Source: Candidatus Competibacter sp. (lineage in GTDB: Bacteria; Pseudomonadota; Gammaproteobacteria; Competibacterales; Competibacteraceae). From it: DNA of 64,000 nt. The notes below the pieces were generated by a model. That model saw nothing but the letters and a program-made list of their open reading frames with translations. It made no database searches and was not told where the DNA came from. How positions within the stretch are numbered: position 1 is the first letter of the stretch; each line of letters begins with the position of its first letter. The stretch lies in contig JARSSH010000060.1 of the NCBI GenBank assembly GCA_029624815.1, positions 124,001-188,000 on the forward strand, given 5' to 3'. Shown here in pieces: positions 49,269 to 58,516 of this stretch. Both the position numbers and the translations under genes were made by a program.

Positions 49269-50144
49269 TCAAATCGTGCGCTGCGCGGCGGTGGCTAGCC
49301 CCAGGCGTTCGCAGATTGCCAGCGTCGGCCCGGCTTGATTCATCGTGTAGAAATGCAGGCCCGGCGCGCCCCCGTCCAACAGGCGCTGGCATAGGTCGGT
49401 GACTACATCCAAGCCAAAAGTACGGATCGCATCGCGGTCATCGCCATGGCTTTCCAGCCGCTTGCGAATCCAGCGCGGAATTTCCGCGCCACAGTTGTCC
49501 GAGAATCGGGCCAGTTGGGTGAAATTGGTGATTGGCATGATGCCGGGTACGATGGGTAAATCCAGCCCCAGTTTCTCGCAATCGTCCACAAAGCGGAAAT
49601 AGGATTCTGCATTGTAGAAGTACTGAGTGATGGCCCCGTTGGCGCCAGCTTTGACTTTACGTTTGAAATTCAGCAAGTCATGCTCGATGTTCAAGGCTTG
49701 CGGATGGAATTCCGGATAGGCGGCGACTTCGATGTGGAAGTGGTCGCCGGTTTCGGCGCGGATGAATGCCACCAATTCGTTGGCGTAGCGGAATTCGCCG
49801 AATTCGCGCATCCCGGACGGCAAATCGCCCCGCAAGGCGACGAGGCGGTGGATGCCCTGAGCGCGGTAGTGATCCAAAATCTCCCGAATTCCCGTGCGGG
49901 TCGAAGCCACGCAAGTTAGGTGCGGCGCGGCGTCCACGCCGCTGTGGGCCTGAATTGCCTGGATTGCCTGGAAGGTGCGTTCGCGAGTGGAGCCGCCGGC
50001 GCCGTAGGTGACCGAGAAGAACGCCGGTCGCATCCGCATCAGCGCTTCGCGGGCGGCGAACAACTTGTGCATCCCTTCATCAGTGTTGGGGGGAAAGAAT
50101 TCGCAACTGAATACAGGAGGGTGTAGTTGAGATTGCATATTCAT
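49269..50144 (-). CDS. metF: 5,10-methylenetetrahydrofolate reductase
   Basis: A 291-residue FAD enzyme that reduces 5,10-methylene-THF to 5-methyl-THF, supplying the methyl group for methionine. VFSCEFFPPNTDEGMHKLF has the catalytic glutamate; FSVTYGAGGSTRERTFQAI and GIMPITNFTQLARFSDNCGA are family marks. In many proteobacteria metF directly follows metK-ahcY; here five foreign genes intervene. No clear ribosome site precedes its ATG, and the cassette's last gene stops 13 bases before it, so it may rely on read-through and coupling. An ATG two codons further in is possible. Confidence 0.96.
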   Translation of the reverse strand: MNMQSQLHPPVFSCEFFPPNTDEGMHKLFAAREALMRMRPAFFSVTYGAGGSTRERTFQAIQAIQAHSGVDAAPHLTCVASTRTGIREILDHYRAQGIHRLVALRGDLPSGMREFGEFRYANELVAFIRAETGDHFHIEVAAYPEFHPQALNIEHDLLNFKRKVKAGANGAITQYFYNAESYFRFVDDCEKLGLDLPIVPGIMPITNFTQLARFSDNCGAEIPRWIRKRLESHGDDRDAIRTFGLDVVTDLCQRLLDGGAPGLHFYTMNQAGPTLAICERLGLATAAQRTI

Positions 50145-50157
50145 TCAGTCAGTAGAG

Positions 50158-51021
50158 TTAACTTGAAGTTTTGAAGCTATCTAAGTGGTTAGAAATTTCT
50201 AAAGGAACCCTTTTGTTTCTTTTGATTGCAGCGGCAAGATGAAATCGAATTTCATGGCTAATATTATGCTGTCGCTTGATGCGGCTTAACAATGCTTTTC
50301 CACAAATGATTCGTAATAGCTTATCCAGCCGTTCCTCATTAGATGTACCGGGGGTATCGAATGCTTGCACTTTGGCTATATTAATTAGGTAATCTTGCTG
50401 GCAATTAATATATTTTTGAAATCGCTGTTGTATATCTTTGTCTACCCAATTTTTGTCATTGCTATTTGTAAAACCGTCAGTAAATCCCTTTATCCGCTCG
50501 TTATGACAAGCGGCATTGCCAGCTGCGTGGAGAGTTAGTACATCACAATGCTCTAGTAGCTCTTTAACGACATCCTGAGTGCTACGCGGCTTTCTTCCGA
50601 TATGATTTGCTAAATATTCCTCAATCGCTTGAGAATCAACCAAGTAGTTCTCCAACTCCCAACGATTGAGTACCTTGATATAAGGCCCGAAAGGCATGGC
50701 TTGTGCAAAACGAGAATTATCGGTTTCCCAAACCAAGTACCAGTGATCATCCGCCATCACAATATCTCTGTCGACAATGCCGAAAGACTTGATACCGTTA
50801 GTGCGGTCATGGTTGACGCTTTCCCGGACCGCTTGGCATCCTCCATAAGTTGCAGCTCCCTTATTAGCCGGTTTAAACAAAAACTCCATAAGACGATCTC
50901 CAAACCAAATATTGCTATAAATATTATTGTCATCACTAGATTCAAGGTAAACGATTATTTGCCCTGCATAGCGATTGAACAGTGACTCGCTGTCCGAGAG
51001 GTTATTTTTCAGATTCCCCAT
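50158..51021 (-). CDS. DUF4435 / TOPRIM-like protein, putative nuclease effector
   Basis: A 287-residue protein. Candidate TOPRIM metal-site residues are E27 (IIVYLESSDD) and D84/D86 (GIVDRDIVM), followed by the DUF4435 hallmark LNRWELENYLVD at 118-129. In the PARIS defence system a DUF4435 protein (AriB) is released by its ATPase partner and acts as the effector. The gene overlaps the ATPase gene by 20 bases. It is strongly AT-rich compared with metF. Similarity to AriB is by motif and arrangement only; it could also be an OLD-type nuclease subunit. It is the last gene of the inserted cassette. Confidence 0.75.
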   Translation of the reverse strand: MGNLKNNLSDSESLFNRYAGQIIVYLESSDDNNIYSNIWFGDRLMEFLFKPANKGAATYGGCQAVRESVNHDRTNGIKSFGIVDRDIVMADDHWYLVWETDNSRFAQAMPFGPYIKVLNRWELENYLVDSQAIEEYLANHIGRKPRSTQDVVKELLEHCDVLTLHAAGNAACHNERIKGFTDGFTNSNDKNWVDKDIQQRFQKYINCQQDYLINIAKVQAFDTPGTSNEERLDKLLRIICGKALLSRIKRQHNISHEIRFHLAAAIKRNKRVPLEISNHLDSFKTSS

Positions 51022-52213
51022 TGTCTATACTCCGTGCTTCTGCAACGATACGCCCCGCTTTCTCTTCTTCTTCTGGTGTTTCGATGATATGTCCGCCTTT
51101 GCGTAGATTCTCTTCAACTAATTCGAGAGCGAAAGCCTTCATGATCTCGTAGGCGTGGCTAGTGACGATAATAGTTAAGCTAGGATAGTATTCTTTTGCC
51201 AGTTTCTTGAGGTCATAAAGTAATCGATACCGCCATTGAGTATGAAGATGCACGTCGACTTCGTCAATCAATAACAGCGTATTTCGAGTCATGTGCGCGC
51301 CGATGCGTAGAAACATCTGAACTAGGCTCTTTTCTCCGCTGCTCAATCGATCAAGGCGGTGTTCATAATTTTCAGTAACGATGACGGCTTCTGGCGGATC
51401 CTTACGCACACCTTTCAAATAGGTGCTAGATCCATGGAATACACGTTGGTTTACAATCTTAACCGCTTTATCGAAGCGACCATCATCCAACCATTTAAGC
51501 CAAATCAACAAATTGTCTAAAGACTCATTCCATACGCGACCTTCTACAGCAAAGTTATGCACTGGATAGTAACCCCAACCTTTTGGGGTAGTGATAGAGC
51601 GTTCCATGTCTCGCACCGGTATGATGTCACGGTAAGCCGAAAAATAGAGCAGTGTAGGGTAAGTCAATGGATCGCCTTCAAAAATTTGCTGGCGTTCTCC
51701 GATACCGTAGCCAATCAGCGCGGTGAAATCCTTTATCCATTCACTGCTAATACCAATGGCTTCCATACGACCAGAAGCTAAACGGCGGAAACCACCACGC
51801 TGCCAAACACTAGCTCCAATACGCTTTAGATCGCTTTCACCCCAAGCCCGCAAGGCAGTATCTTCTCCCAAACGGCCTGCCAGCAACGAAAGCAAGACAG
51901 TTTCCTTGCGGCCATTGTGGTTCAGCTTGACCCGAATATCCCATTGTGCCCGACCAGAACCATGATCCAAATCTTCAAAGCCAAACTCATCTAATTCGGT
52001 TTGACCGAGCATATTCATCATGGCGACTAAAATTTCTAAAACTGTAGTTTTGCCGCGTCCGTTTTTGGATACCATCAAAAACAGATTACAAGGCTCATCT
52101 TCAGCATCAGTAAAATCAAACTCTTCTAATCGATACTGAAAGGGACCAATACGATCCAAGGTAAGGCGAATCGGGGCGAACTCTTCTATGAGGGTATTTT
52201 CTATCACTGCCAC
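51002..52213 (-). CDS. ABC-type AAA ATPase (AAA_15/AAA_21-like), partner of the DUF4435 protein
   Basis: A 403-residue soluble SMC/ABC-like ATPase. Walker A is SKNGRGKT at residues 49-56, the signature is LSSGEKS at 290-296, Walker B is TLLLIDEVDVHLHTQWRYR from 312, and the switch histidine is in IIVTSHAYEI. Walker A starts with serine where glycine or alanine is usual. No coiled-coil arm is evident, so it is the compact type found in PARIS AriA and OLD-like systems. The GTG start lies two bases from the stop of the preceding FtsK-fusion gene. It probably senses a trigger and controls the TOPRIM partner. Confidence 0.85.
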   Translation of the reverse strand: MAVIENTLIEEFAPIRLTLDRIGPFQYRLEEFDFTDAEDEPCNLFLMVSKNGRGKTTVLEILVAMMNMLGQTELDEFGFEDLDHGSGRAQWDIRVKLNHNGRKETVLLSLLAGRLGEDTALRAWGESDLKRIGASVWQRGGFRRLASGRMEAIGISSEWIKDFTALIGYGIGERQQIFEGDPLTYPTLLYFSAYRDIIPVRDMERSITTPKGWGYYPVHNFAVEGRVWNESLDNLLIWLKWLDDGRFDKAVKIVNQRVFHGSSTYLKGVRKDPPEAVIVTENYEHRLDRLSSGEKSLVQMFLRIGAHMTRNTLLLIDEVDVHLHTQWRYRLLYDLKKLAKEYYPSLTIIVTSHAYEIMKAFALELVEENLRKGGHIIETPEEEEKAGRIVAEARSIDNGESEK

Positions 52214-52214
52214 A

Positions 52215-53726
52215 TCACGTTCTCCCCTTTACAGTTTTTACAGCCAGCGCGATGTCGTCTATCGTGACGTAAACGCCATGTACCCGTTTGATGGGTTGTC
52301 CAATAAGGCGAACCAACATGTCACCACGCCCCAGCAAAAGTTCAGCGCCATGATCATCAAGGATGATGCGCGATTCAGAGGCTTTCTGAACAGTGAGGGC
52401 AATACGTGAGGGAATATTACTGCGTAAAAGCCCGCTGAATGTTTCAGCATCGGGGCGTTGAGTAGCCAGTACCAGATGAATGCCTGCTGATCGAGCTTTT
52501 TGCGCCAGTCTGACCAATAAAGATTCGATCTCTTCATTCTGCATCACCAAGTCAGCCATTTCTTCAACAAAAATAACGATGCGGGGTAGGTTTAATCGGT
52601 GTGAGCGTCGCGCTTCGTCTATATCACGGACGCCAGCTTTGACTAACTGTTCTTCCCTGATTCCCATTTCAGCCACTAAATGACCCAGGATTTCCGCAGC
52701 ATCGCCAGCATTGGTTACAACCTGATTGGCGTAAAGGTGTGGAATACCTTGATAGCTGTTGAATTCCACTCGCTTGGGATCGATCAAGCAGACTTGTAAA
52801 TCAGCGGGTGAGCAACTATGCAACAATGAGATCAGTAGTGCATGAAGAGTAACGCTTTTGCCACTACCAGTAGTGCCACCTACTAATAGATGAGGGGCTT
52901 CAGCCAGATCAAAGTCAAATGGATCGCCCATAACATCCACGCCTGGATAAACCGGCAATCGCCACTCAGAATTACGGTTTTGCAACCAAGTACGCAACTC
53001 TGCTCCAGAAAAACGCTGCCAAGCTTCAGATGAGCGGGGAATATCCAAGTTCATGGTTCTCGACTCGTCAGTACCAGAACTTAACGCTCCTTGGTTGCCA
53101 AGGCCCAAAATAAAACCCAGTTTTTGCAACCCTTTATTAAGACGGTCGCGGTCATTAACATCGGCTAGATAGAGTCGGTAGCGGGTCAGCCGCGCTCCTT
53201 CCTGGATTTGTCGTATTTCTGCTTGAACACCGATGTCACGTAAGGCGCTCTCAATACTGGACTGGTCTAGCGGTTTATCACTAATCGTTTGTGCAGACTG
53301 GCGCAGATCGGAAAGTAATTCCTGGTATAAATATTCGTGAAAATCGTGAGATTCCCTCCAAGATGTGGCGAATTCGCGTAAACCTCGACGGATATGGCGT
53401 TGCAGATACTTTGCATAACGCTCGTCATCACCGAACAGGTTTTCATTGTGATAGACGCTTAACAATGCGCAGAATAGATCAGTAAAGTCTTCTGGTTGAG
53501 CTTTATTATCTTGGCCGGTAAGCTGCTCGAAACTGTATTCACTACCAATTGAATCCCTTCGATCCAGACCCTCGTCTGGTGGTGTGGAAAACTTTAATGA
53601 ACGGGTCAGTGCTAGACGTAGTATAGGCCACTTTGGAGTAGAGGTTGATGTACGTAAGCCCAGGCCTTTATTCTGTATGCGTTTGATAATTTCTTCATCG
53701 CTAGCACTGGTGTAAACTTTGGCCAT
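52215..53726 (-). CDS. DndE-like domain fused to an FtsK/HerA-type DNA translocase
   Basis: A 503-residue protein. Residues about 25-125 (RTSTSTPKWPILRLALTRSL, then GSEYSFEQLTGQ, then KYLQRHIRRGLREF) follow the pattern of DndE, the small nicked-DNA-binding protein of the phosphorothioation complex. From about 255 an FtsK motor follows: Walker A GGTTGSGKSVT (283-293), IDPKRVEFNSYQGIPHL, Walker B RIVIFVEEMADLVM (382-395), ATQRPDAETFSGLLRSNIPS and LDDHGAELLLGRGDML. No membrane segments or gamma domain are present. It lies two bases after dndD. The DndE match is by eye and needs profile confirmation; the FtsK call is firm. Confidence 0.8.
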   Translation of the reverse strand: MAKVYTSASDEEIIKRIQNKGLGLRTSTSTPKWPILRLALTRSLKFSTPPDEGLDRRDSIGSEYSFEQLTGQDNKAQPEDFTDLFCALLSVYHNENLFGDDERYAKYLQRHIRRGLREFATSWRESHDFHEYLYQELLSDLRQSAQTISDKPLDQSSIESALRDIGVQAEIRQIQEGARLTRYRLYLADVNDRDRLNKGLQKLGFILGLGNQGALSSGTDESRTMNLDIPRSSEAWQRFSGAELRTWLQNRNSEWRLPVYPGVDVMGDPFDFDLAEAPHLLVGGTTGSGKSVTLHALLISLLHSCSPADLQVCLIDPKRVEFNSYQGIPHLYANQVVTNAGDAAEILGHLVAEMGIREEQLVKAGVRDIDEARRSHRLNLPRIVIFVEEMADLVMQNEEIESLLVRLAQKARSAGIHLVLATQRPDAETFSGLLRSNIPSRIALTVQKASESRIILDDHGAELLLGRGDMLVRLIGQPIKRVHGVYVTIDDIALAVKTVKGRT

Positions 53727-53728
53727 TA

Positions 53729-55765
53729 TTACGCTACCTTGGAAAACAGTGATTCGCGTAATGGGTTGGTATTTTCACCACTTGCATTGGCTAATCGGTA
53801 TTCACAGTACACATGAGGTTTGAGGATTTGATATTTTTCATGATCAAGCTCGGAATCAGTAGGTAAAATAATGACTTGATCACCTGCGTTGGGGTAATAG
53901 CGAGTTAATAAATTGATCTGATGTTCGCGGTCAATCCGAGCTAATGGAGTATCAATAACCACTGGAACTGATCTACCAGAGACATCCTTTAACGCCCACA
54001 GCAAAGCGGTAGCAATAAGCTGTTTCATTCCAGAAGACATACTTGCCATACCTACCGGTTCATCACTGGCGTTCAAGTAATGAAGATCGAATGATTCTCC
54101 AACTTTAATATGCGTAATTTGATGATGAGATGTCATTAATTCTGCAAACCGCCGGTTAATAGCTTCTTCAATATCCTTGCGGCGACGCGATTTAAGCTCT
54201 TGCTTATAAGATCGAAATAGGCGCTGTAAGGTTGTAGCAAGATCGACTCTTTTCTGACGCTCTCGATCCAACTGGATTGCAGACTCCTGTTGTTTTATTT
54301 CCTGTTGTTTATTATCAATCGCACGTTCTTTTTCTTGTTGCTCCTTTTTTAAATCGCGCAGTCGATCTCGCAACGTATCACGTTGTTGCTCAAGTTCGGT
54401 ATTTTGTTCTTGTCGAGCTTGATAAGCACGTTGCTCGTCACCCGAAAGGCTACTCATGTCATCTAACTTACTCTGAATACCTTCCAAGTCTCGCTTAAGC
54501 TGGCTAATTTGGCGTAAATCGTCGATAGCTCGCTGTCGCTGGTTATCAGCCAGTTGATAGTAATTGAGACGTTTCATTAGGTGGGCAGCTAGAGTTGGGT
54601 CCAGTCGCATTAAACCATCACTTATATCTTCAGGATCGCTTTCATAAGAGCGAAGAATACGTAAAAGTTTTTTACGATAGAACTCTCGTTGCTGTTGGCT
54701 GAGTGGCAACTGATAATGAGGTGGCTCATCCAGAAGACGTACAGGAAGAGCGTTCAATAAAACCTGAACCTCCTGTGCCAAACCGCCAGCCTGGCTATCA
54801 GTGAGCCTACGTAGATCCGTTGCAGCTTTGCTAACCAATCCAGGATTAAAAAGCAGAGGCGCATCAATGGGTAGACGGTTAGCAAGATCGGAGCTTGTAG
54901 TTTCTAACTGTTCTGAAATACGCTGCTTATCATTCTTATATATTGCCTCGTTACGCTGATGTACAAAAGCCTGTTGATTTTCCAAATAACGCCGATTTCG
55001 ACTGATACTTTTTTCCAAAATGGTAAGCTCTTCACTCAATTCATCAATTTTCTGGCTAAACTCCTTTTGTTCCGCTTGCAGTAAATTCAAACTTCCTTGT
55101 AGTGCAACCCGTTGTGTTTCTAGGTTGGATTCTGATTTTTCCCGACGCCAAGCGGTAACGGTTTTTCCTATATATTCTTCCAGCACATCAATGTCGGCAA
55201 TATCAAGAATTTTCTCGACCTGTGCTAACTGGCCTTCCCGATTGGCTTCAGCGAGTCGTTGTACCTGCTCACCGTCGTAAAAGAAAAACGAGATGAAGTC
55301 CTTAGGTAGCCGTCGCTCCAGAAAATCATCCGCTTCATCATCTTCTAAAGGGTCAGCGAAGTCTAGCGTAACTCTCAGAACGTCTTCACAGCCACCGCGA
55401 CCGTCCAAACGCCAACGACGCTGTGCGGTTACCTTACCCTCGGGTTCACGCCAATCAATGGAAATGCCAAATTCCGTTTGGCCTTCACGCCGCGCTTGGC
55501 GATTGAATATACCTAACCACTCATCGCCCATGCCTAGCAGATAGTTCATTACGCTTGGCTTTCGACCCACCTGAAGCGCAGACCGTAAACTTTCATGGGG
55601 TCCGAGAAACAGGAGTTTCAAGCTGTTGATGAAGCTCGTCTTGCCGAAACCGTTACGCCCCCCAATCAATACAACGTTACGTCCATCGTTAGGCAGCGTC
55701 AGATCGAATATCTGTTCACCGTAATACGAAAACAAATTATGGATGCGAATCTGTTCAAAGATCAT
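53729..55765 (-). CDS. dndD: DNA phosphorothioation protein DndD (SMC-like ATPase)
   Basis: A 678-residue SMC/Rad50-like ATPase of the phosphorothioate-modification complex. MIFEQIRIHNLFSYYGEQIF and Walker A GGRNGFGKTSF (35-45) open the protein. SFFFYDGEQVQRLAEA is typical of DndD. Two long coiled-coil arms (about 190-270 and 415-515) flank a hinge. The C-terminal half has the signature MASMSSGMKQLIATALLWAL and Walker B VPVVIDTPLARID. I chose the ATG giving MIFEQIRI, which overlaps the dndC stop by 11 bases; the upstream frame extension reads over dndC and is not coding. Confidence 0.9.
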   Translation of the reverse strand: MIFEQIRIHNLFSYYGEQIFDLTLPNDGRNVVLIGGRNGFGKTSFINSLKLLFLGPHESLRSALQVGRKPSVMNYLLGMGDEWLGIFNRQARREGQTEFGISIDWREPEGKVTAQRRWRLDGRGGCEDVLRVTLDFADPLEDDEADDFLERRLPKDFISFFFYDGEQVQRLAEANREGQLAQVEKILDIADIDVLEEYIGKTVTAWRREKSESNLETQRVALQGSLNLLQAEQKEFSQKIDELSEELTILEKSISRNRRYLENQQAFVHQRNEAIYKNDKQRISEQLETTSSDLANRLPIDAPLLFNPGLVSKAATDLRRLTDSQAGGLAQEVQVLLNALPVRLLDEPPHYQLPLSQQQREFYRKKLLRILRSYESDPEDISDGLMRLDPTLAAHLMKRLNYYQLADNQRQRAIDDLRQISQLKRDLEGIQSKLDDMSSLSGDEQRAYQARQEQNTELEQQRDTLRDRLRDLKKEQQEKERAIDNKQQEIKQQESAIQLDRERQKRVDLATTLQRLFRSYKQELKSRRRKDIEEAINRRFAELMTSHHQITHIKVGESFDLHYLNASDEPVGMASMSSGMKQLIATALLWALKDVSGRSVPVVIDTPLARIDREHQINLLTRYYPNAGDQVIILPTDSELDHEKYQILKPHVYCEYRLANASGENTNPLRESLFSKVA

Positions 55766-57098
55766 CGGCCGGATCAGCCTTGTATGCCTGTTTGACTGCT
55801 TTATCGATGAGATCACGGACGGCGGTTTGTAGACCGGACTTAGCACCGTGTTTATCCAAAGAAGGAAACTGGTCACGCACCAAGCGTAACAATTCTTTTG
55901 GTAAATCAGGATGAACATCACTTTCTACTGCCAGTCGCTCCAGTAAATCCTCATCCGCAGGTATATCAGCAGTGGATTTTTTCATCATGTTGATCTCCCT
56001 GCCGTAACGAATTGTTAACTGATAGGCAGTTTGAGAAAAATCGAAGTCTTTAGTCCATTGTTCTTGAATATAGACTAAATCTTCGTCAGAGATTAACTCA
56101 AAATTTACATCCCGCTCTTTTTCCAGAAGGCGTTCGAGAATGATTTTACGTGCTTCGGGAGTAAATGGGCCGGGGCCAGTAGTATTATCGCGCCGTACTG
56201 AACTACGGTAGCGCGTATCTTCACGAATTTGCTTGAGCCAATCACGAAACTCGCTGAGTGGTTTCATCCAGGTTTCGCCGGATTCAATGAAGCCCTGCAT
56301 GGATTTGTCCTGTTTGACTACTGTACAAGTCCAGCAGCCAAAGCGGCTGCCGCCACAGGATGGAGTATTCAAATCTAATACGACAGGGCACTCGCCGCCA
56401 CTGGCCTGCCGGTAAAGTTCCAGCATGTAATTGTGATTACCACCCCACGGCGGAGAGTTGTGGGTAAATAGATATTCCCAGACCTCATCAGTGCTCCAGT
56501 CCGCGATTGGCGTCATCACCAAAGCATTAGGAATCTCGTGATGCGGATTCAGTTGCCTGTCATTACCTTCCCTAGCTTGCATGCGTGTGCGGCGGCTATC
56601 GCTCTCATCCAAACGAGTACCAAGCAACAGGATAACGCTACCATACTGCCGGGTAATCTCGTCTATGGCACGGCGCGAAGGCTTGATTTTCATATTGCTG
56701 GTGCACCATCGAAACCAGCGGGTAGGGGATGGGTAACCCTTACCTATGAGATTACCCCAAAAGCTTTCTTTGGCAGTGGGTTTGACTAAGCGAACGCTTA
56801 ATGTCAAACCACGAGTAAGTGAGTCGCTCTCAATAAGTTTCAGTGTGTGTTCGATGTATTTCGAAATGTTCGGAGCTTCAACCCGAGTATCCGAGGAGAT
56901 CACGAAAACAGACTTTCTGGCTCGGCTCTCAAGTTGCAGCAGCATTTCATATACCAACTGCAACACGAGAGTCGAGTCTTTACCGCCAGAATAGGCCACT
57001 ACCCAAGGACGGTCATCGGCCAGGAATTGCTTGATGAGCAATTCCAACGTGGATGTCCCTAAGCTTGGCTGTAAAACATCCGTGCGGATGGCTTCCAT
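55755..57098 (-). CDS. dndC: DNA phosphorothioation protein DndC (PP-loop sulfurtransferase)
   Basis: A 447-residue PAPS-reductase-like ATP pyrophosphatase that activates and transfers sulphur to the DNA backbone. The PP-loop is VVAYSGGKDSTLVLQL (SGGKDS 37-42). FRWCTSNMKIKPSRR (C132) and the cluster C237, C248, GSRFGCWTCTVVKQ (C255, C258) are DndC hallmarks and candidate [4Fe-4S] ligands. VWEYLFTHNSPPWGG is also typical. The ATG overlaps the ahcY stop (TAATG). No dndA or dndB is present, so sulphur would come from a housekeeping cysteine desulfurase. Base usage is AT-richer than ahcY. Confidence 0.92.
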   Translation of the reverse strand: MEAIRTDVLQPSLGTSTLELLIKQFLADDRPWVVAYSGGKDSTLVLQLVYEMLLQLESRARKSVFVISSDTRVEAPNISKYIEHTLKLIESDSLTRGLTLSVRLVKPTAKESFWGNLIGKGYPSPTRWFRWCTSNMKIKPSRRAIDEITRQYGSVILLLGTRLDESDSRRTRMQAREGNDRQLNPHHEIPNALVMTPIADWSTDEVWEYLFTHNSPPWGGNHNYMLELYRQASGGECPVVLDLNTPSCGGSRFGCWTCTVVKQDKSMQGFIESGETWMKPLSEFRDWLKQIREDTRYRSSVRRDNTTGPGPFTPEARKIILERLLEKERDVNFELISDEDLVYIQEQWTKDFDFSQTAYQLTIRYGREINMMKKSTADIPADEDLLERLAVESDVHPDLPKELLRLVRDQFPSLDKHGAKSGLQTAVRDLIDKAVKQAYKADPADDL

Positions 57099-58516
57099 TA
57101 ATAGCGATAATTCTCCGCCTTATACGGTCCATCTACCGCGACGCCAATATACGCAGCCTGCTCCGGCGTGAGCGTGGTCAGTCTGGCGCCGATCCGATCC
57201 AAATGCAGCCGGGCCACCTTTTCGTCCAGATGCTTGGGCAGCACGTAGACTTTGTTTTCGTACTGACCGCCACGAGTGAACAGCTCGATCTGCGCCAGCA
57301 CCTGATTGGTGAAGGAGTTGGACATCACGAAGCTGGGGTGGCCGGTGGCGCAGCCCAAGTTCACCAGACGCCCCTCGGCCAGCAGGATAATGCGCTTGCC
57401 GTCGGGGAAAATGATGTGATCCACCTGCGGCTTGATGTTTTCCCAGCGATGCTGCCTGAGGTTGGCCACTTCGATTTCGGAATCGAAATGGCCGATGTTG
57501 CAGACGATGGCCTGATTTTTCATCCGTGCCATGTGATTGTGAGCGATGACGCCGACATTACCGGTGGCGGTGACAAAAATGTCGGCCTTGTCCGCCGCGT
57601 CGTCCATCGTGACCACCCGATAACCCTCCATCGCCGCCTGCAGGGCGCAAATCGGGTCGATTTCGGTGATCCACACCGTCGCGCCCAAGCCTTTAAGCGA
57701 CTGCGCGCAGCCCTTGCCCACGTCGCCGTAGCCCAGCACCACCGCGATCTTGCCGGCGATCATCACATCGGTGGCGCGCTTGATGCCGTCCACCAGCGAT
57801 TCGCGGCAACCGTAGAGATTATCGAACTTGGATTTGGTGACCGAGTCGTTGACGTTGATGGCGGGGAAGGGCAGCCGGCCCTCTTTCTCCATCGTGTACA
57901 GACGATGGACGCCGGTCGTCGTCTCCTCGGTCACCCCCTTGATATTCGCCTGGATCTTTGAGTACCAACCGGGTTGGCTTTCCAACCGTTTGCCGATGGC
58001 GGCAAACAGAACCTGCTCTTCCTCGCAGCTTGGATTGGCAATCAGCGAGCGGTCCCGTTCCGCCCGGACGCCGAGCGTGACCAGCAAAGTCGCGTCGCCG
58101 CCATCGTCCAGGATCATGTTCGGCGTGCCGCCGTCGTGCCATTCCAGGATGCGATGCGTAAAATCCCAGTACTCGTCCAGCGATTCGCCCTTGTAGGCGA
58201 ACACCGGAATGCCGTCGGCGGCGATGGCGGCGGCGGCGTGATCCTGAGTCGAGAAAATGTTGCAAGAGGCCCAGCGCACGTCCGCGCCCAGTTCGGCCAG
58301 GGTTTCGATCAGAACGGCGGTCTGGATGGTCATGTGCAGCGAGCCGGCGATGCGGGCGCCCTTGAGCGGCTGCCGGTCCCGGTATTCGGCCCGGATCGCC
58401 ATCAGGCCGGGCATCTCGGTTTCGGCGATGGCGATTTCCTTGCGGCCCCAGTCCGCCAGGGCGATATCGGCGACATGAAAGTCAACGGTGGTTTTTTCGC
58501 GCACGACGGCGTTCAT
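57098..58516 (-). CDS. ahcY: S-adenosylhomocysteinase
   Basis: A 472-residue NAD-containing hydrolase that splits S-adenosylhomocysteine into adenosine and homocysteine, removing the inhibitor of methyltransferases. [63 protein letters not shown] (NAD site) and the C-terminal KAENYRY are all present. The ATG giving [17 protein letters not shown] has GGAG eight bases upstream. An SAH riboswitch precedes it; metK is upstream. The stop overlaps the dndC start. Confidence 0.98.

What the first reader, a model, noticed from the sequence alone, without database searches (positions are those of the whole stretch)
50158..57098. Five-gene phosphorothioation-type defence cassette inserted between ahcY and metF
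dndC, dndD, a DndE-FtsK fusion, an ABC/AAA ATPase and a DUF4435 TOPRIM-like gene run on one strand with overlaps or gaps of at most a few bases. They are AT-richer than both neighbours. metK-ahcY-metF are normally contiguous in proteobacteria, so the cassette appears to have landed inside this operon with no loss of frame. The set lacks dndA, dndB and dndFGH. I do not recall a described Dnd system with exactly this composition, but I cannot search the literature here.
Basis: partly seen in the sequence, partly recalled or inferred. Interest (0 to 1): 0.92.

Follow-up and report, generated by a model that had tools for sequence, protein, structure and literature searches.

The report
Sulfur-DNA defence operon with PARIS-like effector
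A five-gene bacterial operon joins the machinery that puts sulfur into the DNA backbone to a PARIS-like ATPase and nuclease pair; the same set recurs in unrelated bacteria, so it looks like one defence system with its own built-in killing arm.

Summary
dndC, dndD, dndE-ftsK, an OLD/AriA-class ABC ATPase and a DUF4435 (AriB-like TOPRIM) gene lie on one strand between intact ahcY and metF, AT-richer than both. Searched by the ATPase alone, 10 of 397 other genomes hit (9 of them in one class): DUF4435 lies downstream in 10 of 10, DndE-FtsK upstream in 9. Of 72,556 plasmid records 2 hit, both at DndE-FtsK loci. On a tree of 44 DndE-FtsK proteins the pair marks one group with one loss. The DUF4435 model matches AriB well above the rest (Z 15.2), and the pair meets the published PARIS rule. 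The DndE-FtsK fusion is already published; its link to a PARIS-like pair was not found in my searches. Likely mechanism (inferred): DndC/DndD/DndE-FtsK mark and scan DNA, and the ATPase/TOPRIM pair is the effector, by abortive RNA or DNA cleavage. Relatives carry IetAS at the same ahcY-metF site, a defence hotspot.

The parts
55755..57098 (-). dndC: PP-loop sulfurtransferase; SGGKDST loop and cysteines C132, C237, C248, C255, C258 conserved
   Evidence: TIGR03183 1.8e-110, 369.9 bits over cut-off 290.4; columns in which at most 1 of 17 DndC rows differs
53729..55765 (-). dndD: SMC/Rad50-like ABC ATPase with coiled coil, no CxC zinc hook (the ORF itself extends to 55921)
   Evidence: TIGR03185 2.1e-80 over cut-off; best PADLOC profile PbeC 7e-164, DndD 2.5e-87; no CxC or CxxC in 21 of 21 DndD rows
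52215..53726 (-). dndE-ftsK fusion: N-terminal DndE DNA-binding domain (res 6-120) joined to an FtsK/SpoIIIE motor, Walker A GGTTGSGKS
   Evidence: Pfam PF08870 33.2 bits over cut-off 25; PF01580 2.3e-45; alignment A1
51002..52213 (-). OLD-class ABC ATPase (AriA/PtuA-like); NxxGKTT, SxGE, DE and H353 invariant in 10 rows
   Evidence: AAA_21 and AAA_15 over cut-off; alignment A4; model pLDDT 87, PtuA Z 22.1 (rmsd 3.4, 301 residues), AriA Z 16.9 (rmsd 3.9, 251 residues)
50158..51021 (-). DUF4435 protein, AriB-like TOPRIM nuclease candidate; E27, D31, D84, E122, E124 invariant in 10 rows
   Evidence: PF14491 over cut-off; PADLOC AriB 1.2e-9; alignment A3; model pLDDT 89, AriB Z 15.2 (rmsd 4.2, 248 residues), next family (OLD TOPRIM) Z 8.1 (rmsd 4.6, 165 residues)
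57098..58516 (-). ahcY, host flank on the dndC side; its stop codon overlaps the dndC start
49269..50144 (-). metF, host flank on the DUF4435 side, intact

Best explanation
It is one horizontally acquired defence system of a Dnd subtype, with a built-in PARIS-like effector. DndC activates sulfur delivered by a host cysteine desulfurase and, with DndD and the DndE-FtsK protein, puts phosphorothioate marks on self DNA. The DndE part chooses the site, and the FtsK motor moves along or grips DNA. The OLD-class ATPase holds the DUF4435 TOPRIM nuclease inactive. When the Dnd complex meets unmarked DNA or is disabled by a phage anti-restriction protein, the ATPase releases the nuclease, which cuts tRNA (as AriB does) or DNA and stops the infected cell. 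Shown here: gene families, motifs, AriB fold of the effector model, fixed order, co-inheritance, insertion site. Inferred: actual phosphorothioation, the trigger, the substrate.
For: Five gene families. Same order at named loci L081, L085, L086, L087, L110 and, with DndC interrupted, L082, and at unnamed loci L270, L271, L275, L278. ATPase-first search: 10 of 397 other genomes, DUF4435 downstream in 10 of 10, DndE-FtsK upstream in 9 of 10; 2 plasmid records of 72,556 at E 1e-8, both DndE-FtsK loci. As background, none of the other 368 genomes of the class sample has a match that reaches into the DndE part (E <= 1e-40). One group of DndE-FtsK carries the pair, with one loss, 0 of 500 shuffles as low. 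Distance matrices of the five proteins correlate (r 0.72-0.93, 0 of 999 permutations as high). AriB is the only family well above the rest for the effector model. A phosphorothioation-associated methyltransferase (TIGR04096, over cut-off) follows the pair in L085, L088 and L110 and the broken L076, which ties these loci further to phosphorothioation. A full-length IscS-like protein is encoded elsewhere in the genome (517 bits, below that model's cut-off of 643), and PMC10853773 states that IscS can replace DndA in vitro.
Against: No experiment shows phosphorothioate or defence. Nine of the 10 genomes of the ATPase-first search belong to one class of 48 searched genomes, and the DndE-FtsK of eight of them form one tight group, so the 9 of 10 is far fewer than nine independent cases. 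One genome (G431) has the pair with no Dnd genes within the 17 kb looked at, and one DndE-FtsK of the group (L084) lacks the pair, so each half can exist alone. In L082, L272, L276 and L277 DndC is interrupted, short or weak, which could mean that modification is dispensable, or may be assembly error. The ATPase fold is nearer PtuA than AriA. Foldseek's own E-value for AriB is only 5e-3, and a sequence profile of the DUF4435 rows finds nothing in the PDB. In Salmonella StySA the comparable ATPase-DUF4435 pair is not needed for modification (PMC9009780), which fits a separate guard as well as an effector arm. IscS identity rests on a sub-cut-off score.
Confidence: 0.6

Rival explanations
1. Two independent systems side by side: a Dnd modification module and an ordinary PARIS that guards it, with no direct mechanical link. 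PARIS would sense an anti-restriction protein on its own, as described for T7 Ocr.
For: The pair meets the published PARIS rule (AAA_21 41.7 >= 27, AAA_15 37.4 >= 32, DUF4435 30.8 >= 27). PARIS-like pairs sit inside BREX, and in StySA the pair is dispensable for modification. G431 has the pair without Dnd.
Against: In what I searched, this ATPase subfamily is mostly beside DndE-FtsK (9 of 10 genomes, though mostly one class; 2 of 2 plasmid records) and co-varies with the Dnd proteins. The tree needs one gain and one loss only. A freely moving pair would be expected to be more scattered.
Confidence: 0.27
2. The DndC-like enzyme and partners make a different mark, or no mark, and the operon is a DNA-scanning alarm: DndD/DndE-FtsK detect foreign or replicating DNA and switch on the TOPRIM nuclease.
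For: DndC is interrupted or weak in 4 related loci while the other genes stay. PMC10853773 argues that DndD-DndE cores exist without phosphorothioation.
Against: In the window DndC scores over the DndC cut-off, and the ATP loop and five cysteines are kept with at most 1 of 17 rows differing.
Confidence: 0.1

Closest known systems
Dnd subset with DndE fused to a HerA/FtsK domain (PMC10853773, clade-3; their ref 24, not held)
   Same: DndE-FtsK fusion beside a DndD-related ABC ATPase in phosphorothioation loci
   Different: The paper's main text, searched for TOPRIM and OLD, does not tie this fusion to an ATPase-TOPRIM pair. Here the family splits into loci with the pair and loci without it.
PARIS (AriA-AriB)
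   Same: Adjacent AAA_15/AAA_21 ATPase and DUF4435 genes over the published thresholds; AriB fold; TOPRIM acidic residues
   Different: In one operon with DndC-DndD-DndE/FtsK in most loci found; ATPase fold nearer PtuA than AriA; trigger and substrate unknown
Salmonella StySA BREX with embedded ATPase-DUF4435
   Same: ATPase-DUF4435 pair inside a modification-based defence locus (PMC9009780, passages)
   Different: Partner there is a methylation-type BREX; here it is the Dnd sulfur machinery
CxC ABC/PbeABCD (DndCDEA-PbeABCD)
   Same: PbeC is the best PADLOC profile for the ABC ATPase
   Different: No CxC zinc hook in 21 of 21; no PbeA among the PADLOC rows shown for the five genes (at most 25 rows a protein)
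IetAS
   Same: Occupies the same ahcY-metF site in relatives
   Different: Unrelated proteins (AAA ATPase and subtilisin-like peptidase)

Membership tests
Dnd phosphorothioation system | DndC sulfurtransferase | tested here: met
   TIGR03183 369.9 bits, cut-off 290.4; PP-loop and cysteines conserved
Dnd phosphorothioation system | DndD ABC ATPase | tested here: met
   TIGR03185 271 bits, cut-off 245.85
Dnd phosphorothioation system | DndE DNA-binding domain | tested here: met
   PF08870 33.2 over cut-off 25. The narrower stand-alone model TIGR03184 is not met (15.8 of 71.85): it is a fused, divergent DndE
Dnd phosphorothioation system | DndA or a substitute cysteine desulfurase | tested here: inconclusive
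   No dndA in the operon; IscS-like protein in the genome at 517 bits, below the cut-off of 643
Dnd phosphorothioation system | Phosphorothioate in DNA | not testable with these tools
   Needs iodine cleavage or mass spectrometry
DndFGH restriction | DndF/DptF gene present | tested here: inconclusive
   No match in the own genome, but the control did not ring anywhere
CxC/PbeABCD | CxC zinc hook in the ABC ATPase | tested here: not met
   0 of 21 DndD rows
PARIS | Adjacent genes: AAA_15 >= 32 or AAA_21 >= 27 bits, and DUF4435 >= 27 bits (rule in PMC9122126) | tested here: met
   37.4, 41.7 and 30.8 bits (rule read)
PARIS | AriB fold and TOPRIM acidic residues | tested here: met
   8ux9_A Z 15.2 (rmsd 4.2, 248 residues), 8v46_D Z 14.9, next 8.1; E27, D84, E122, E124 invariant
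PARIS | Activation by an anti-restriction protein and tRNA cleavage | not testable with these tools
   Bench test needed
Gabija | OLD ATPase and TOPRIM in one protein, with a UvrD-like helicase gene | tested here: not met
   Two separate genes and no helicase family among the five genes' Pfam matches, HerA/FtsK motor aside
Septu / retron PtuAB | PtuA ATPase with an HNH partner PtuB | tested here: not met
   ATPase is PtuA-like, but the partner gene is DUF4435

The most novel reading that the evidence does not exclude
A Dnd subtype in which the restriction arm, long unclear for Dnd systems without DndFGH, is a PARIS-like ATPase-TOPRIM pair, wired to the modification state of DNA through a DndE-FtsK motor: phosphorothioation by the same operon would keep a suicidal tRNA or DNA nuclease in check. 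It would join RM-like self-marking to abortive infection in five genes.
Probability: 0.35. Interest if true: 0.82.

Novelty: new variant of a known kind. Interest (0 to 1): 0.63.

Why it matters
Most taxa with Dnd modification genes lack DndFGH, and what does the restricting in them is an open question (PMC10853773). Here a near-dedicated candidate effector is tied to one group of Dnd machinery by order, linkage and co-variation, also in named strains with DSM numbers, so the question becomes testable by deleting one gene. It also shows a PARIS-like pair joining a second class of modification system besides BREX, and adds ahcY-metF as a site where different defence systems replace one another.

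Tried and rejected
Chance neighbours: rejected by the ATPase-first searches, with the caveat on shared ancestry given above. Integrase or target-site repeats at the cassette ends: the two-copy repeats found do not flank the cassette and look like chance. Conserved extra genes: of 44 collected neighbours, 10 were scanned with Pfam, which showed nothing shared over a cut-off; a later comparison showed that three downstream genes (L085, L088, L110) are related, and NCBIfam names them, and one in L076, TIGR04096. No match to it in the own genome, but that control did not ring. DUF4435 in plasmids: no match at 1e-3, although L077 holds a divergent one. Sequence search of DUF4435 in the PDB: nothing. 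Paper searches for prior reports; PMC8649781 was looked at by passages and did not bear on it. The 2020 ABC ATPase classification and the Nature PARIS structure paper are not held; supplements could not be read. Tree label 'without pair' for L099 and L095 rests on 200 and about 620 bases of downstream sequence only.
Full report
Observation. The dndC start overlaps the ahcY stop and metF starts 13 bp after the last gene. GC falls to about 41-52% across the cassette from 55-65% over metF and ahcY/metK. The window is G000:C60:124001-188000 of a 3.63-Mb genome, 99.97% complete.

Families. DndC and DndD pass their NCBIfam cut-offs. The third protein carries DndE over the Pfam cut-off and an FtsK motor. 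The fourth is an AAA_21/AAA_15 ATPase and the fifth DUF4435. PADLOC gives DndC, PbeC/DndD, PtuA/AriA-like and AriB for the first, second, fourth and fifth. Its best match to the third is SspH (2.9e-56, to the FtsK part), with DndE weak there (0.01).

Insertion and hotspot. In the same family, ahcY and metF lie under 300 bp apart at 19 of 25 sites that I could resolve, and likewise at 3 of 3 same-class outgroup sites (the values printed include the last bases of ahcY, which that query lacked). The 25 are the window plus 24 sites in 22 other genomes. Six of the 25 are occupied. One is the window. Four hold an AAA ATPase plus subtilisin-like peptidase (L034, L035, L036, L038); PADLOC calls the L034 pair IetA (6.7e-138) and IetS (1.2e-281), and the other three look near-identical by eye but were not scanned. 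One (L037) holds only two small genes. Five further stretches with metF had no ahcY in reach (L015, L039, L040, L041, L043), and hits in G007, G014, G021 and G034 were not followed. The IetA-IetS genes run in the same direction as ahcY and metF, as the Dnd cassette does, so read-through from the housekeeping genes is possible (inference).

Recurrence. Of the 80 loci, 30 (L081-L110) I take as true DndE-FtsK. By phmmer with the window's proteins, 8 of the 30 have the ATPase-DUF4435 pair. DndC-DndD-DndE/FtsK-ATPase-DUF4435 is seen in L081 Dechloromonas, L085 Thiorhodococcus, L086 Marinobacter, L087 Sideroxydans and L110 Thiocystis; in L082 Thiocystis with DndC interrupted; in L083 Desulfobacteraceae the contig starts inside DndD. 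L088 Humitalea and plasmid L077 Mesorhizobium have DndD-DndE/FtsK-ATPase-DUF4435 with DndC in a neighbouring set; plasmid L076 is broken. L084 groups with these but lacks the pair. The other 21 (L089-L109) show no pair; 17 of them show DndC and 19 DndD, the rest starting too near the edge. In the three annotated plasmids of this second type (L078-L080) a small protein lies between dndC and dndD, and TusA follows in L078 and L079.

Accessory gene. Directly after DUF4435, L085, L088 and L110 carry a gene of TIGR04096, 'DNA phosphorothioation-associated putative methyltransferase', at 425-583 bits over a cut-off of 150; broken plasmid L076 has one too (301 bits). The window has metF there instead, and no match was found in the own genome, with a silent control.

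Independent test of linkage. I then searched with the ATPase alone (alignment A6). Of 398 genomes of the phylum, own included, 10 others match at E <= 1e-30, all between 1e-112 and 1e-124. DUF4435 follows in 10 of 10; DndE-FtsK precedes in 9 of 10; the exception is G431. With longer stretches, DndD precedes in 9 of 9; DndC is whole in L270, L271, L275 and L278, short or weak in L272 and L276, split in L277, and beyond the contig end in L273 and L274. In L272 the ATPase itself is split. A limit: 9 of these 10 genomes (all but G580) are of one class, in which a DUF4435-first search of 48 genomes finds the same 9, and the DndE-FtsK of eight form one tight group. In 72,556 plasmids the ATPase matches two records at E <= 1e-8, both already known as DndE-FtsK loci. 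For background, none of the other 368 genomes of the own-class sample has a match reaching into the DndE part at E <= 1e-40.

Co-inheritance. On a quick tree of 44 DndE-FtsK proteins (midpoint root), the 19 with the pair sit in one group of 20 with L084, SH-aLRT 100; the label needs 2 changes against about 14.5 in shuffles, 0 of 500 as low. Pairwise distances of the five proteins correlate at r 0.72-0.93 over 12-17 loci, 0 of 999 permutations as high. The close unnamed relatives (L270, L272-L278) raise these values; L082 was left out as a near copy of L110; for L077 and L088 DndC comes from the neighbouring set.

Effector pair. The ATPase keeps NxxGKTT, SxGE, DE and H353 in 10 of 10 rows. Its model (pLDDT 87) is nearest PtuA (Z 22.1, rmsd 3.4, 301 residues) and then AriA (Z 16.9, rmsd 3.9, 251 residues). 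The DUF4435 proteins keep E27, D31, D84, E122 and E124 in 10 of 10. The model (pLDDT 89) matches AriB at Z 15.2 and 14.9 (rmsd 4.2, 248 and 247 residues); OLD TOPRIM is next at 8.1 (rmsd 4.6, 165 residues), although Foldseek's own E-value for AriB is only 5e-3. AriB E26A does not cleave tRNA (PMC12409363, passages); that E27 here is the same residue is inferred from its place. The pair meets the PARIS rule printed in PMC9122126 (passages).

Modification arm. DndC keeps the PP-loop and five cysteines, at most 1 of 17 rows differing. It is the only DndC match in the genome. No DndB match was found (control rings in 2 of 14); DptF was not found, but that control was silent. A cysteine desulfurase close to IscS is present, under the strict cut-off. 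DndD lacks the CxC hook in 21 of 21.

Literature. PMC10853773 (abstract, five sections and passages) already reports DndE fused to an FtsK domain next to a DndD-related ATPase, and argues that diverse nucleases serve Dnd loci lacking DndFGH. PMC12839542 (passages) and PMC9009780 (passages) show PARIS-like pairs inside BREX.

Verdict. A real, recurrent five-gene Dnd variant with a PARIS-like effector pair. The parts are known kinds; the fixed combination, its linkage across one group of DndE-FtsK and the hotspot are the new points. Phosphorothioation, trigger and substrate remain to be shown.

Noticed in passing
L034, L035, L036, L038 (ahcY-metF junction of relatives): IetAS defence genes (scored by PADLOC for L034 only) sit in the same ahcY-metF gap as the Dnd cassette, in the same direction; the L036 peptidase gene is split.
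   Followed up: partly
L037:16597-17788: The ahcY-metF gap holds only a 175-aa gene and a 139-aa retropepsin-like gene (name by eye); relatives of both also lie beside IetAS in L034-L036 (the small one cut short in L035).
   Followed up: no
L085:7068-9671, L088:13648-15696, L110:13632-16211, L076:12714-13859: A phosphorothioation-associated putative methyltransferase (TIGR04096) lies downstream of the pair in these loci but not in the window.
   Followed up: partly
L095:496-3007: In a Rhodocyclaceae contig metF lies about 420 bp upstream of the dndC of a DndE-FtsK locus of the second type, hinting that the metF neighbourhood is used in other families too.
   Followed up: no
L269:9103-11262: G431 carries the ATPase-DUF4435 pair with no Dnd genes in 17 kb; two large neighbours on the other strand match nothing in PADLOC at 1e-5.
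   Followed up: partly
L082, L272, L276, L277: DndC is interrupted, short or weak while the rest of the operon is kept (the ATPase of L272 is also split).
   Followed up: no
L077:1808-12532: Mesorhizobium plasmid holds a desulfurase-DndC-ABC ATPase-DndE set followed directly by small protein-DndD-DndE/FtsK-ATPase-DUF4435-like, two ABC ATPase/DndE pairs in one locus.
   Followed up: partly
L189:2644-7482: An IMG/VR viral contig carries DndC, DndD and DndE-FtsK of the subtype without the pair.
   Followed up: no
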